Part shown: positions 21,334-54,140 of the stretch, in pieces
Layout: the number at the start of each line of letters is the position of its first letter
How positions within the stretch are numbered: the first letter of the stretch is position 1
Assembly: GCF_035083965.1 (NCBI RefSeq)
Contig: NC_089724.1
Location: 5,938,001 to 6,002,000, forward strand
Reading direction: 5' to 3'
From: Branchiostoma lanceolatum
Taxonomy: Eukaryota; Chordata; Leptocardii; Amphioxiformes; Branchiostomatidae
DNA: 64,000 nucleotides
Made by a program: the position numbers and the translations under genes
The notes under the pieces: generated by a model
What the model was told of the DNA's origin: nothing
What the model saw: the letters and a program-made list of their open reading frames with translations, nothing else
The model's database searches: none

Positions 21334-22810
21334 GAGATGCACACCCCTAGCCTGGTTTCCACCCTATTCTAGATCCAGAGCGTTTCTTTGATCGCTTCCC
21401 TTGCCAAATAGTCTGGCACCCGTTAATGCTATGGTCCCATTTTCAAAGCGAGGCCCGGCCGGGCAGCTTGTGGGAACGAAAAATGTGATATAAAAGACAA
21501 CAAAAGACACAAAGCGTTAAAAAAATTACTCCTAACCATATATTGTGTATTTTCTTGAAATGCAATTTTATTTTTCCTTTTCGCAAACAGCTTGACCGTG
21601 CCCCACTTTGGAAATGGGACCATAGCATGAAGAAGAATGATTGACATTTGAATATTTAAGTAAAAAATATATATGAGAGCTCCAATTGCCTTGCCTTATT
21701 GTGACAGTCCTTGCAATCACATGGTAACAGGATTCAAAACAGGCATTCGGAAGTTTGGTCCCTGTTACACCGCTTCCGAGAAATATTTGATTCGGAAATG
21801 ATGCAGGACGTAAGGACCAAATGTTTAAATGGGGACGAGGGCCAGATTATTCTGTGAAAAAGCTATGGGAGGAGCTTGAATAGGATTGATACCTGGCTAG
21901 CACTCTCTCACAAAAACGTCTAAGAGAAACTTAACCTTTATGAACTTGAGGAGCATGGACGAGTCAAAGACTTATCCTCACTGTGAGGTACCTTGATGGA
22001 CATATCTTTCACACGACTCTTCCTTCCCTTGAGGAAATGACTTTGAATTTTGTACCACTTAAAATACTTGAATATGCCAAAAATTTGTAACATATAGTAA
22101 GTACATGTGTTTGTCTGAAAACCAGAGCGATTGTTCAAGTTCTGGATGCTGTCATCATACCTACATGTATTACAGTTTGGTCATTATGGTGTTTTAAAAT
22201 TGTGATGGAGTTGGGTATGGTGGAGGAGAGTTGTATTTTTGGCAACTCTATCTGTGTTTTGTATATCTTCTTGCCCATTATCTTACAGAGACTGCTGTAT
22301 TCCACCGAAGTTGTTGCGACTTATAAATAGCATTGTTTTATGTGCAATGGACAGTTAGACTGTTAATTAAAAATGTATGCTATACTGCATATGATATGTA
22401 TATTTATTTATACTGAGTATAAATTTTGACATTTTGTTGTTAATAGCCATGTAAAATTGCCATTTATCCATGGCCTCAGTGAACCTTTTCAATAGTGTTC
22501 TTTGAATTTGATGGTGTTAAATTTTCCTTGAAAACTATCAGGCATGTTTAACATATGATATCATTTCCTAGTGAGAAAACAATATTATTTGTTGAATTTC
22601 ATCCCTATTACTGACATGTCTATGAAGAAGACATTATTACAGTAATACATGCTTGTACATGCTACATGAGAGCAAAATGTGAGGCGTAAGGTTTGGTCCA
22701 GGTGGATTATATCGTTTTCTTTATTGTGTATGATATGATGTAACTAGACAATGACATTATGTAAAGCTATTTAAAGCTACAGCTGTACAGAAAATGTTGC
22801 AATAAAAGAG
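21334..22810 (+). other. SFT2 gene 3' flank / probable 3' UTR
   Basis: After the stop codon there is about 1.5 kb without coding potential, ending near an AATAAA signal at 22801-22806, which is the likely polyadenylation signal. From about 22,010 onward this stretch is homologous to 41,050-41,990, including the poly(A) signal region. Confidence 0.55.
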
Positions 22811-23513
22811 TCTATATAATTATGTGGAAAATTCTGCCTTATTTTTGACCATAAATTCCTTCAAAGTTCTGCTCAAATGAAGTTGCTATGGTATCATTTT
22901 GTGTACATTAATTAGCTCGGCTCGAAATTCAGTTTTGGAAATAGGTGCACTGGTGCAACCCTAGTCCGGGCAAGCTGCCCGATATGATGATGATGATGGT
23001 GCACCCAACCAAAAAAAATAGGTGCACAGAAAGAATTTTGGGTGCACAACATAGAATAAAGTTGTATGTCAGCAAAACATAATTACAAAGTTTAACGCTC
23101 TTAAGAACTTCAATCTGTAATTCTATAGCTATAAAGCTTAAGATTTCAAACAAGTGATACATCAAGTACAACAAAAGGTTTTATTATTTTTTTCTGATAC
23201 ATAACTCAAGAATATTCTGTATACTTACTGTATACTTACTGTTGATACTGCAAACTATCATAAGTGAAATAAGAAAATTGATATAGCAGATATCCTGTAA
23301 TGTGCAAATCGGAGCTTTGGAAAGCTCCACCTCTTCATGTTGAGTCTAGCCACTGGTGCAGTCCCTACAAAAGGAGCAAGAAGAAAAAATACTTTGTTGT
23401 ACAATGTCAGCAGAAAAATCTTGCAAATACCTTGACTGGAACATCACATTACTTATTTGAAAATCACCTGGTGTAAGCTCACACAGAAAGGACAGAAGAC
23501 TTCAGCTGTGTAC

Positions 23514-24109
23514 TTACTGTCCCAAGACTTCCACACGCATGCTGAGGTAACTATTCCATGTCTGCGGCCAGAACCGGACATAACGTGCAGTTACCGACGG
23601 GTCCAACAGGTGGCGCACTTCAGTGTCCTGATCAGAGTTGCCAGAGAAGACCTAGGAGGGTATTGTAAAGAAAGTCAAAGAACAGGCTACCAGCAACCCC
23701 ACACAAAACAAGAGTTTGGAGATCTCATATCTCCATGAAATATATATAATGCAAATTAGACCCTCATTTGGATAATTCACATTGAACCATCTTCACCTTC
23801 ACATAACTTAGTTTGCATAATTTGCTCTTCATTATGTACATCTCTGTCTGCATATAAAATATCATGGAAATCCGTCGTTCCTTTGTTCAGTTATTCCCCT
23901 TGGAAGATTTTGACAAAAACGCCCCTGCAGTTCCAGAGCAAGCTGCCAGGTGGCCAAAACCTACAGCACTTCTTCCTTACATCACAAGCTAAAATAGACC
24001 ATAGCATGTTCAGGTCAAAAGATACAGAAAATGGAAGTTCTGCTGCTGTACCAAGGCCACATACCAGGGGGCCCAAAATCGACCTTAGGCACACACGAAC
24101 ACACACATG

Positions 24110-24175
<66 letters not shown>

Positions 24176-51938: not shown

Positions 51939-52950
51939 CGCAACTGAGACTGTGTAAAATGACATGTAAAAGCATGATGTGAAGTTTCGGACACTGAGGT
52001 GTGCAGCCATCTTAGGGGGTGATAGACAGCCGGGGGGTTAAGTGGTGTGGGTTCTGGGGAAAGTCAGACTTCGGACGTTGGGCCTCGGTCCTTCAGGGAC
52101 TCATCACCGCTTCAGATAGATAAGATGGCTGTGCCTTCCCAACTCTTATGTATATAATCTTTACTTTGTTTTCTATCTATAGTACTGTTATTACAGGCGT
52201 GAGTAACGACGCTTAGTTAGGTTTAGGGTTGTGTTCGACTGGTTATGAGTAGGTTAAGGTAGTGAGTATCGGTGTTTTGCTGAAGTCAGGTTAGAAAAGG
52301 TTCTCTATGGTGTTGGTCACGGGTGTTTATGGCGGTCAGGCTTGGCGTGTGTGTGGTTGTGTTCTCTCTCCCTTTCCCAGCACAGGCCACAGCAGGCAGA
52401 GGAGTGACGATCAAGTGTCCATCTGGCACTCGTTATCCAGGCCTACCAGGACGACACGAGCCGGCCCACCCTACACAGGGACTCCACCAGCAGCGGGAGG
52501 CGACGCCGGGGAACTTCTCAAGGAAGCCGGTGGGCCCAGCTGCAATTCAGGAGGAGTCGGGGAATGCCGTCCTTGTGCACCGTGCCACGGCGGGATCGGT
52601 GCGAGGCACGCCACACCGCCGACGAGCGAGAAGAGTCGTGACAGGCGCCGAGTCTATGTGAGGAGCTGTGAAGAGCGGAGAACGTTTGTTGAACTTGAAT
52701 ATGAACTGACATACGAGTGTGTTTTCTTAAATGTCCGTTTGAATCTGATGGACAATGAACGAACTTTGTTCCTGTCCTTCGCTTGAACGTTCCAACTGTG
52801 TAAACGTTGTTGAACCGTCATGTTATCTCCAACAGGCAACACTAATCATTATGTATTATAATTAACATGTTTTTTATCTGTTCGTTTGAAAAGGAAAAGA
52901 ATTCCGTACACCATTCGCCGAGGACGGCTCATTAAAAACTCGTGGGTGGG
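51939..52950 (+). other. Retrotransposon region between pol and 3' LTR
   Basis: About 1 kb separates pol from the 3' LTR. An open frame of 159 codons (about 52307-52786) is present, but it is Arg/Gly/Pro-rich, has no membrane segment or recognised domain, and overlaps another open frame. It is therefore most likely non-coding. The nearest purine run is GAAAAGGAAAAGAA at about 52,888-52,901; directly before the LTR the sequence is GTGGGTGGG, so the polypurine tract is not clear. Confidence 0.55.
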
Positions 52951-53333
52951 TGTGAGAGGGGCGAAACTAAGTTAATTAAGTGCAGAACTCTCTCGTTGTG
53001 TAACCGTCTTTAATTAATAGCAGGACTATCGCTATCTTCTGAAGGCTAAGTGTAATTAATCGTACGGAGTTTGGCTTTAGAAGTGACGGCCGTAACGACG
53101 TTTTAATGATGTTCCCACTAGGGGTTAATTCCGGCGTCGCGACAAGGTTTAGATAAGAGAAGAAATAAAGTGACAGTGGCGGAGTTCCCAGGCAGTCGGT
53201 CTCTGGACTCAAGAGCTGACGGACGCCTAAGTACGAGCCCTGTGTGTGCGGAATACATTCTGTGTCTTGTGTGATTCCTTCCCTCTCTATGCGGGATCTC
53301 TAAAGAACCAAGGGTATAACCACCACCCTTACA
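52951..53333 (+). repeat. 3' LTR
   Basis: This copy is the same length as the 5' LTR. It differs only near the end (ATAACC...CCTTACA against ATTACC...CCTCACA). Confidence 0.95.
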
Positions 53334-54140
53334 CAATCGCAGTTCTTAATGTAACGCTACATCTTCATTGCTTCAAGGCGATGGTGAATTAAAGTAAAAC
53401 TCTTAGAAAGTGAGGAAGAGGTCATGTTGTCATGTAACATTTTATGAGCTGATGCGAGCTGACATAACCAAGATTTGGGATTATAACATTGTAGTTTACA
53501 GTTGCCGTATTAAACACCCTTACCTGGTCATAAGAAACAAACGAACAGAATATGAAAGGAGTGAATAACCTTTCTAAAACTATAGCTTCCTATGATGTTC
53601 TGTCTGAACAGGGAATGCTGGACGTGCAATCAAAGCAAAAGAACTTCGGTATCACCCCTTACCTCATGAGAGGTTCCGTAGGTTGGTTCTTGTACATTTC
53701 CGACACCGAGTTGGATCTTGGTTTCCAGCACAGCCAGCCGCTCCCTCAAAGACGCCCCGTCAGCTTTCTCCTTCTGTAACTCCGTCTGCAGGGACGACAG
53801 TTGTATTTTCAGGGCCGTCATTTCCTCCTTGTGAGACGACACTTCCTCGTTGTAACTAGCAGCGGCGTCTTGCTTGATCTCCATGGCCAAGGTGCGGTCC
53901 TTCAGCGTCAAGATCTGGTCATTCGCCTTCGCTAGTTGATCTCGCAGTTGAGACACTTTTTGAGTGGACATCTCTCGGACATTCTTAACTTCGTGAGCGA
54001 GGAAGACGAGGGCCGCCACGACCAGCACCCCCGTCCCGACCGCCACCGCCACAGTCACTGCCTGGTCGGGCCGCGCCGGGTCGGTCTCGGCGGGCCCTGC
54101 CGACAACTTCGCTTACGTTAAGGAGCTTCTCCGAGCTCAT

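What the first reader, a model, noticed from the sequence alone, without database searches (positions are those of the whole stretch)
22010..54140. Four-gene cluster with heads and stems recombined in a chequerboard
Seen: four consecutive minus-strand genes share one architecture. By C-terminal head and collagen exon they group 1+4 (F5/8C) and 2+3 (9-Cys). By N-terminal exon and furin-site exon they group 1+2 (RRYRR|S) and 3+4 (RRSKR|S). Both groupings are sharp, and the change falls in the intron between the furin-site exon and the collagen exon (genes 1 and 2: similarity starts near 27,216/34,273; genes 3 and 4: near 38,563/45,258). Inference: unequal exchange or gene conversion at this intron swaps recognition heads onto different stems, a modular diversification system for membrane-tethered, sheddable collagen-type recognition proteins.
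Basis: partly seen in the sequence, partly recalled or inferred. Interest (0 to 1): 0.88.

Follow-up and report, generated by a model that had tools for sequence, protein, structure and literature searches.

The report
Lancelet genes with swapped heads
Four neighbouring lancelet genes for cell-surface proteins carry two kinds of binding head on two kinds of stem in all four combinations, most likely because copying errors that cut inside the genes, at one particular place, joined old stems to other heads.

Summary
The window is Branchiostoma lanceolatum: gene 1's model equals a database protein over 403 residues. The chequerboard is real in the DNA, with corrections. Heads and the 3' part of the collagen exon group 1+4 / 2+3; furin exons and flanks group 1+2 / 3+4. 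The core of exon 1 instead holds a 1+4 / 2+3 patch. The "9-Cys" head has ten invariant cysteines. Gene 4 is frameshifted before its membrane anchor.

Mechanism: 27,204-31,232 (stem 1, intergenic, head 2) and 34,261-38,339 (stem 2, intergenic, head 3) are two copies of one ~4 kb unit that is out of phase with the genes, so one tandem duplication explains genes 1-3. Gene 4 pairs a head-1-like with a stem-3-like block and could be the reciprocal product. Conversion-like patches overlie this.

Trees: stem classes are older than the B. floridae split; heads group by species. B. floridae models hold all four combinations plus a pentraxin head. A second B. lanceolatum protein set has gene 1's head (97-98%) on another stem. 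Functional diversification is unproven. Verdict: a well-resolved, probably recurrent form of exon shuffling.

The parts
23346..28106 (-). Gene 1 (Y stem, F5/8C head): exons 28106-27618 (anchor+coil), 27306-27210 (furin RRYRR|S), 26103-25976 (collagen), 25770-25573, 24484-24338, 23651-23518, 23364-23346 (F5/8C, stop)
   Evidence: model, open; identical to P0009 over 403 aa
29515..35182 (-). Gene 2 (Y stem, ten-Cys head): exons 35182-34727, 34360-34267 (furin RRYRR|S), 31216-31086 and 30927-30819 (collagen), 30410-30227 and 29689-29515 (head)
   Evidence: not found as a representative of its own (nearest P0001, 85% overall)
36567..40452 (-). Gene 3 (K stem, ten-Cys head): exons 40452-39985, 38758-38638 (furin RRSKR|S), 38322-38189 and 37855-37783 (collagen; database model runs to 37762), 37285-37099 and 36744-36567 (head)
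   Evidence: P0001 differs only at the exon 4 donor
42307..54140 (-). Gene 4 (K stem, F5/8C head), exon 1 frameshifted: exons 54140-53663, 45445-45325 (furin RRSKR|S), 44818-44691 (collagen), 44182-44018, 43386-43240, 42615-42482, 42325-42307
   Evidence: frameshift at 54061-54064; database model P0039 starts at a downstream Met
27204..31232 (.). Unit U1: stem 1 + intergenic + head 2 and collagen exon of gene 2
   Evidence: collinear homology to U2, 88.0% over 3692 aligned columns, windows 67-99.5%
34261..38339 (.). Unit U2: stem 2 + intergenic + head 3 and collagen exon of gene 3
22015..26142 (.). Head block of gene 1 with 3' flank, homologous to 41054-44862 (gene 4)
   Evidence: no match found for 24590-25385
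41054..44862 (.). Head block of gene 4 with 3' flank
   Evidence: no match found for 43492-43814
38562..41050 (.). Stem block of gene 3 with 5' flank, homologous to 45248-55400 (gene 4); firm to 40971/55326, weak beyond
45248..55400 (.). Stem block of gene 4 with 5' flank, interrupted by an LTR element 46046-53333
26104..27209 (.). Furin|collagen intron of gene 1 (switch point), largely a dispersed repeat (26330-27095)
31217..34266 (.). Furin|collagen intron of gene 2 (U1|U2 junction), holds a reverse transcriptase ORF 31642-33873 (+)
38323..38637 (.). Furin|collagen intron of gene 3
44819..45324 (.). Furin|collagen intron of gene 4
23598..24059 (.). Conversion-like tract with 42562-43017 (gene 4): at most 2 mismatches in 456 columns
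   Evidence: 0 of 5000 shuffles reach it; noncoding columns alone: 428, 0 of 5000
28890..29137 (.). Conversion-like tract with 35953-36206 (intergenic): at most 2 mismatches in 248 columns
   Evidence: 0 of 5000 shuffles

Best explanation
The array grew by unequal exchanges whose breakpoints lie between the furin-site exon and the collagen exon (in or at the edge of a phase-1 intron), so the repeat unit is out of phase with the gene. SHOWN by the DNA: [stem 1 - intergenic - head 2] and [stem 2 - intergenic - head 3] are two copies of one unit. Starting from F5/8C-on-Y followed by ten-Cys-on-K, one tandem duplication of that unit yields genes 1, 2 and 3, with gene 2 as the chimera. SHOWN: gene 4 is a head-1-like block joined to a stem-3-like block at the same intron. 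INFERRED: gene 4 is the matching deletion (reciprocal) product of such an exchange, rejoined in tandem, or the unsplit form of the gene whose two halves are now head 1 and stem 3. SHOWN: near-identical patches, best read as later gene conversion, overlie the duplications. INFERRED from protein trees and other protein sets: swapping has recurred, since the stem classes are older than the B. lanceolatum / B. floridae split while heads group by species. INFERRED function: type II membrane-anchored coiled-coil trimers with a furin site just before a short collagen stretch, so that the collagen-plus-head part can be shed; swapping puts recognition heads under different stems and upstream regions.
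For: Collinear U1/U2 homology through about 1.4 kb of intergenic DNA. The furin|collagen intron is phase 1 in the open models of genes 1-3, and gene 4's furin exon has the length of gene 3's and its collagen exon the length of gene 1's, so stem-head joins stay in frame. Interiors of the four introns are unrelated; that of gene 1 is largely a dispersed repeat and that of gene 2 holds a reverse transcriptase ORF. Stem tree: the K class (7 rows, B. lanceolatum and B. floridae-type together) has support 100/99; stem groups 2+3 and 1+4 are rejected (p-AU 0.0012 and 0.0002; 0.0025 and 0.00004 after trimming the out-of-frame start of gene 4). Head trees: the five B. lanceolatum F5/8C heads form one clade (96/91), the three K-stem F heads as a clade are rejected (p-AU 0.00096), and gene 3 + the B. 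floridae K-stem ten-Cys head are rejected (0.0021). Head type changes at least 7 times on the stem tree of 26 labelled tips, the highest number possible; 927 of 1000 bootstrap trees need 7, the others 6. P0018 is 79/72% to gene 1 in exons 1/2 but 95/97/98/98% from the collagen exon on. Conversion-like tracts.
Against: All four combinations also occur among B. floridae models (the K-tenCys one rests on a single model, P0003, that lacks the furin exon), so the chequerboard could be ancestral, with heads kept alike within a species by conversion; then the swap is not recent. The core of exon 1 groups 1+4 / 2+3, against the simple history. Breakpoints cannot be read because the introns share only short edges, and for heads 2/3 the switch could lie inside the collagen exon. 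The reciprocal origin of gene 4 is one of at least two histories. The stem tree is weakly resolved inside the Y class (12 of 25 inner branches of the whole tree open). P0018 and the B. floridae proteins are gene predictions; chimeric predictions in lancelets are documented (PMC4967905, abstract and section 12 read); P0018's collagen exon is also 95% to P0011. One member (gene 4) has lost its anchor in this sequence.
Confidence: 0.75

Rival explanations
1. Ancestral chequerboard plus concerted evolution: all four combinations existed before the lancelet species split, and segment-limited gene conversion has since kept like heads alike and like stems alike within each species.
For: All four stem-head combinations are present among B. 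floridae models. Conversion-like tracts in head 1/4 and between intergenic regions. Heads group by species. Exon 1 is a mosaic.
Against: It still needs the out-of-phase duplication to explain the homologous intergenic regions 1-2 and 2-3, so it changes the date, not the origin. The least similar parts of both duplications are similarly diverged (windows to K 0.2-0.45), which fits either view.
Confidence: 0.3
2. Assembly error: alleles or haplotigs of one or two genes were placed in tandem.
For: Lancelets are extremely heterozygous, and haplotypes assembled as separate loci are a known hazard (PMC9673378, passages read). Part of head 1/4 is 99% identical.
Against: 15 of 19 windows of U1/U2 and 12 of 17 windows of head 1/4 are below 95% identity, some at 67-80%, more than I recall for lancelet alleles (a few per cent). 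Only the gene-4 copy carries the LTR element and the frameshift. Predicted proteins of B. floridae, and a second B. lanceolatum set, hold the same family with several of these combinations.
Confidence: 0.06
3. Head exchange is mainly an RNA event: read-through and cross-gene splicing in the tandem array join first exons of one gene to downstream exons of another.
For: B. floridae models X8, X9 and X11 share an identical first 138 residues (exon 1) with three different downstream modules; X10 and X11 share the last 239 residues with different first exons; X5 and X9 share the last 160. Exon phases allow it.
Against: The DNA here is already recombined, so RNA is not needed. The predicted switch is at exon 1|2, not at furin|collagen. 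Such isoforms can arise by mis-mapping of reads between near-identical copies. I saw no such chimera among the B. lanceolatum representatives found, but the other members of those clusters could not be inspected.
Confidence: 0.12
4. Plain neutral birth-and-death of a tandem family, with no selected role for recombination at this place.
For: dN below dS in both head pairs; one of four genes broken; lancelets show high exon rearrangement generally (PMC4284660, section 14 read).
Against: Three head types on the same stem classes across species, with as many head changes on the stem tree as possible. Recurrence does not by itself show selection.
Confidence: 0.45

Closest known systems
Lancelet exon shuffling (Huang et al. 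2014, PMC4284660; passages and section 14 read)
   Same: Subgenic exon rearrangement in lancelets, phase-1 bias, mobile-element fragments enriched in the rearranged regions.
   Different: That is a genome-wide statistic between assemblies. Here one array shows the event in DNA: unit, junction, intergenic homology and conversion-like patches, with protein-level support from a second species.
MACIT collagens and colmedins/ectodysplasin (collagen-bearing type II membrane proteins; PMC7848082, passages read)
   Same: N-terminal anchor, coiled coil, furin-type site just before the first collagen stretch, C-terminal ectodomain.
   Different: Collagen part is very short and below Pfam's cut-off; heads are F5/8C, an unnamed ten-Cys domain or pentraxin, not olfactomedin or TNF; tandem array with swapped heads.
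Chimeric genes from tandem duplication with intragenic breakpoints / Lepore-type unequal crossover (recalled; only a search listing was seen)
   Same: A duplication unit out of phase with genes makes a fusion of neighbour 5' and 3' halves.
   Different: Seems to recur at one place in a family, and both partner and recombinant combinations are kept.
Clustered, recombining invertebrate recognition families such as sea-urchin Sp185/333 or snail FREPs (recalled)
   Same: Tandem, variable, segments reassorted.
   Different: Here whole unrelated head domains are exchanged rather than sequence elements of one domain; no immune role is shown.

Membership tests
F5/8 type C (discoidin) domain proteins | PF00754 above gathering score | tested here: met
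   Gene 1: 109.5 bits, cut-off 28.2; gene 4 as P0039: 115.6; PDB sequence matches to factor VIII/V and neuropilin chains
Collagen triple-helix proteins (PF01391) | Pfam gathering score reached | tested here: not met
   Gene 1 12.0, gene 2 24.0, P0001 16.7 bits against 27.2; 8-11 unbroken G-X-Y triplets in the first run. The other-stem relative P0002 reaches 30.3
MACIT / collagen-like type II membrane proteins | Furin-type site just N-terminal to the first collagen stretch | tested here: met
   RRYRR|S or RRSKR|S about 20 residues before GRDGRDG in 4 of 4 genes; cleavage itself not testable here
MACIT / collagen-like type II membrane proteins | N-terminal signal anchor, type II | tested here: inconclusive
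   One hydrophobic stretch after an Arg-rich start, read from the sequence only; gene 4 is out of frame there
Colmedins | Olfactomedin head | tested here: not met
   No olfactomedin model listed for genes 1 and 2 or for seven relatives
Collectins (database name 'collectin-12-like') | C-type lectin domain | tested here: not met
   No C-type lectin model listed for gene 2 or P0001
Pentraxins | PF00354 head on the same stem | tested here: met
   B. floridae P0023 only: 134 bits, cut-off 25, on a K stem; its head has no match in the window
Out-of-phase tandem-duplication chimeras | One repeat unit that starts inside one gene, crosses the intergenic region and ends inside the next, present twice in tandem | tested here: met
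   27204-31232 and 34261-38339
Out-of-phase tandem-duplication chimeras | Breakpoint sequence identifiable | tested here: inconclusive
   Intron interiors unrelated, holding a reverse transcriptase ORF or a dispersed repeat in two of four; short edges not diagnostic for heads 2/3

The most novel reading that the evidence does not exclude
A combinatorial surface-protein array: tandem lancelet genes in which interchangeable heads (F5/8C, a new ten-Cys domain, pentraxin) are reassorted onto interchangeable, sheddable stems by meiotic unequal exchange at one fixed phase-1 intron, and additionally by cross-gene splicing of first exons, so that haplotypes and individuals carry different head-stem repertoires used in recognition.
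Probability: 0.2. Interest if true: 0.85.

Novelty: new variant of a known kind. Interest (0 to 1): 0.58.

Why it matters
Whether lancelets really shuffle protein domains unusually fast is disputed (PMC4284660 against PMC4967905). This array gives a case that does not rest on gene predictions: the swap is visible in the genomic DNA, with its unit, junction and overlying conversion-like patches. If the swapping segregates within species, as P0018 hints, it becomes a place to measure the rate of domain exchange directly and to ask whether head-stem combinations matter for recognition.

Tried and rejected

Rejected: 'same grouping in all exons'; whole-array haplotig artefact. Left open: ancestral chequerboard with conversion.

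Stem tree rows: of the 37 proteins, 24 were used with the four window genes. Dropped were P0001, P0009, P0039 (same genes as 3, 1, 4) and P0003, P0014, P0024, P0028, P0031, P0034, P0035, P0037, P0040, P0041 (broken, fused or partial models, or simply not picked). In some searches and 66 gene 4's stem began with about 16 out-of-frame residues; one search repeats the stem tree without them. Genes 1+2 are not each other's nearest on the stem tree (gene 1 joins P0011 and P0010); holding them together is not rejected (p-AU 0.088). In the F-head tree gene 1 joins P0018 (89/82), and 1+4 as a pair is neither in the best tree nor rejected (0.23). The third conversion test (stem 3/4) was weaker: all columns 0 of 5000 shuffles, noncoding alone 21 of 5000. 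Which parent species a hybrid-labelled protein comes from cannot be told. That P0018 and P0011 come from assembly BraLan3 is inferred from a different contig length and gene-symbol names, not stated by a tool. That X8-X11 belong to one locus is inferred from numbering and shared sequence.

No paper on this cluster was seen in the listings; the library is partial.

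Full report
WHAT THE WINDOW IS. No whole genome is held for the window. Gene 1's translated model is identical over 403 residues to a Branchiostoma lanceolatum protein (P0009), so the window is from the European lancelet. Gene 3 matches P0001 except for one splice choice, and P0039 is the downstream part of gene 4. Gene 2 did not turn up as a representative of its own in the head search; its nearest, P0001, is 85% identical. The genes lie in the order 1-2-3-4 along the + strand and are transcribed from right to left.

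ANATOMY. Each gene has an anchor-and-coiled-coil exon, a furin-site exon, a collagen exon and head exons; genes 2 and 3 have a second collagen exon. The furin|collagen intron is phase 1 in the open models of genes 1-3. Heads 1 and 4 are F5/8C domains. Heads 2 and 3 are a domain without a Pfam model, with ten cysteines invariant in 10 of 10 aligned proteins. Of 8 proteins found with it, 7 are lancelet and 1 is from a mussel (P0008, 37% identity). The collagen stretch is short and below Pfam's cut-off. Gene 4 has 4 bases more than gene 3 at 54,061-54,064 and is out of frame before the anchor.

IS THE CHEQUERBOARD REAL? Yes, with limits. In four-way alignments the furin exon has 24 of 25 informative sites for 12|34, and the collagen exon 9 of 11 for 14|23, all in its last 50 columns. 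Exon 1 is not sharp: pair identities run from 86 to 91%. Its ends support 12|34 (14 sites), but a central patch supports 14|23 (6 sites plus an indel), with 3 sites for 13|24. With flanks included and 13|24 sites left out, the clustering has p = 0.00025 in shuffles. The heptad of that indel is present in some and absent from other K and Y stems, in B. lanceolatum as in B. floridae, so it assorts independently of stem class.

THE UNIT IS OUT OF PHASE WITH THE GENES. Self-comparison shows one collinear block, 27,204-31,232 against 34,261-38,339 (88.0% over 3,692 aligned columns). It starts 6 bp past gene 1's furin exon, runs through stem 1, the intergenic region, head 2 and its collagen exon, and stops 16 bp before that exon. 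The second copy does the same with stem 2 and head 3. Between the copies lies gene 2's furin|collagen intron, which holds a reverse transcriptase ORF. A tandem duplication of this unit in a two-gene array (F5/8C on Y, ten-Cys on K) produces genes 1, 2 and 3 in the order seen. The short edge before the collagen exon is no better conserved between genes 2 and 3 than between other pairs, so on that side the switch may lie in the intron or in the first part of the collagen exon, which has no informative 12|34 or 14|23 sites before column 82.

GENE 4. Head 1 with its 3' flank (22,015-26,142) matches 41,054-44,862, including 39-44 bp of intron before the collagen exon. Stem 3 with its 5' flank (38,562 to 40,971, weakly to about 41,050) matches 45,248 to 55,326 (weakly to about 55,400), including 76 bp of intron after the furin exon, and interrupted there by an LTR element (46,046-53,333, LTRs 99.5% alike). 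The two gene-4 blocks meet at the same intron, and gene 4's 3' flank begins about where gene 3's 5' flank ends. Gene 4 thus looks like 'head 1 plus stem 3' without the U units. It may be the reciprocal deletion product of the exchange that made genes 1-3, or the unsplit form. The data here do not decide. The intron interiors are unrelated among the four genes; in gene 1 most is a dispersed repeat and in gene 2 there is the reverse transcriptase ORF, so breakpoints cannot be read.

LATER CONVERSION. Divergence is patchy in both duplications. In head 1/4 a tract of 456 columns has at most 2 mismatches (23,598-24,059 / 42,562-43,017), and among noncoding columns alone the longest such run is 428; 0 of 5,000 shuffles reach either. 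In U1/U2 an intergenic tract of 248 columns behaves likewise. For stem 3/4 the result is weaker in noncoding columns (21 of 5,000). Other windows fall to 67-80%. The tracts are best read as gene conversion.

TREES. Stem tree (28 rows): the K class, holding B. lanceolatum and B. floridae-type sequences, has support 100/99. Stems 2+3 and 1+4 as pairs are rejected (p-AU 0.0012 and 0.0002; 0.0025 and 0.00004). Genes 3+4 are supported (98/90; 99/88). Genes 1+2 are in the same class but not each other's nearest (holding them together: p-AU 0.088). F5/8C tree (19 rows): the five B. lanceolatum heads form one clade (96/91), and the three K-stem heads are rejected as a clade (0.00096). Ten-Cys tree (11 rows): 2+3 together (92/90, not starred), gene 3 with the B. 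floridae K-stem head rejected (0.0021), all Y-stem heads rejected (0.0008). On the stem tree, head type needs at least 7 changes over 26 labelled tips, the highest number possible; 186 of 300 label shuffles also need 7, and 927 of 1,000 bootstrap trees need 7. In other words, heads are spread over stems much as if at random.

OTHER GENOMES. B. floridae models include Y-F5/8C, Y-tenCys, K-F5/8C, K-tenCys (one model, P0003, without a furin exon) and a K stem with a pentraxin head (P0023 PF00354 134 bits). P0018, from what appears to be another B. lanceolatum assembly, matches gene 1 at 79% and 72% in exons 1 and 2 and 95-98% from the collagen exon on: the same switch point in another haplotype, unless the prediction is chimeric. 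Among B. floridae predictions, X8, X9 and X11 share an identical first exon (138 residues) with different downstream modules, while X10/X11 and X5/X9 share 239- and 160-residue C-termini. This hints at cross-gene splicing at intron 1. Banyai and Patthy (PMC4967905, abstract and section 12 read) warn that such lancelet predictions can be wrong, so these points are secondary to the DNA evidence.

HOW IT PROBABLY WORKS. By analogy with membrane collagens XIII, XXIII and XXV, colmedins and ectodysplasin (PMC7848082, passages read), an N-terminal anchor and coiled coil would trimerise the chains, and a proprotein convertase would cut just before the collagen stretch to release the head trimer. This is inference: no cleavage, binding or expression was tested. 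The head pairs in this window show dN below dS (0.042/0.158 and 0.020/0.043), which gives no sign of diversifying selection in these pairs.

CONCLUSION. The explanation is an out-of-phase tandem duplication and related exchanges at one place in the gene, overlaid by conversion, probably recurrent in the family. It is a new variant of known exon shuffling. An adaptive diversification system remains a hypothesis.

Noticed in passing
55448-55643: Interstitial telomere-type array (TTAGGG-like) directly beyond the upstream edge of the gene 4 block.
   Followed up: no
46046-53333: LTR retrotransposon (gag-like ORF, RT, RNase H, integrase; + strand) in gene 4 intron 1, LTRs 383 bp and 99.5% alike, hence probably young.
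   Followed up: partly
31642-33873: Reverse transcriptase ORF (+, LINE-like by my reading) inside gene 2's furin|collagen intron, at the U1|U2 junction.
   Followed up: partly
54061-54064: Four extra bases in gene 4 exon 1 relative to gene 3 put the anchor out of frame; a B. lanceolatum protein with the same first 26 residues but an intact anchor exists (P0018).
   Followed up: partly
37762-37783: Gene 3 lacks four bases at the exon 4 donor present in gene 2; the database model uses a donor 21 bp on, adding a Cys-containing insert.
   Followed up: yes
30843-30927: 36-bp repeat inside gene 2's second collagen exon (2.4 copies); gene 3's exon is 36 bp shorter.
   Followed up: no
4275-7628: Long + strand ORF that looks like a leucine-rich-repeat receptor, with about ten 84-bp repeats coding [14 protein letters not shown] units (identity judged by eye).
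   Followed up: no
61018-63023: Plus-strand exons resembling serine palmitoyltransferase (judged by eye), with a 118-bp tandem repeat at 61494-61857.
   Followed up: no
29515-30410 and 36567-37285: Unnamed ten-cysteine domain, in lancelets and once in Mytilus (P0008); no family model and no solved relative found.
   Followed up: partly
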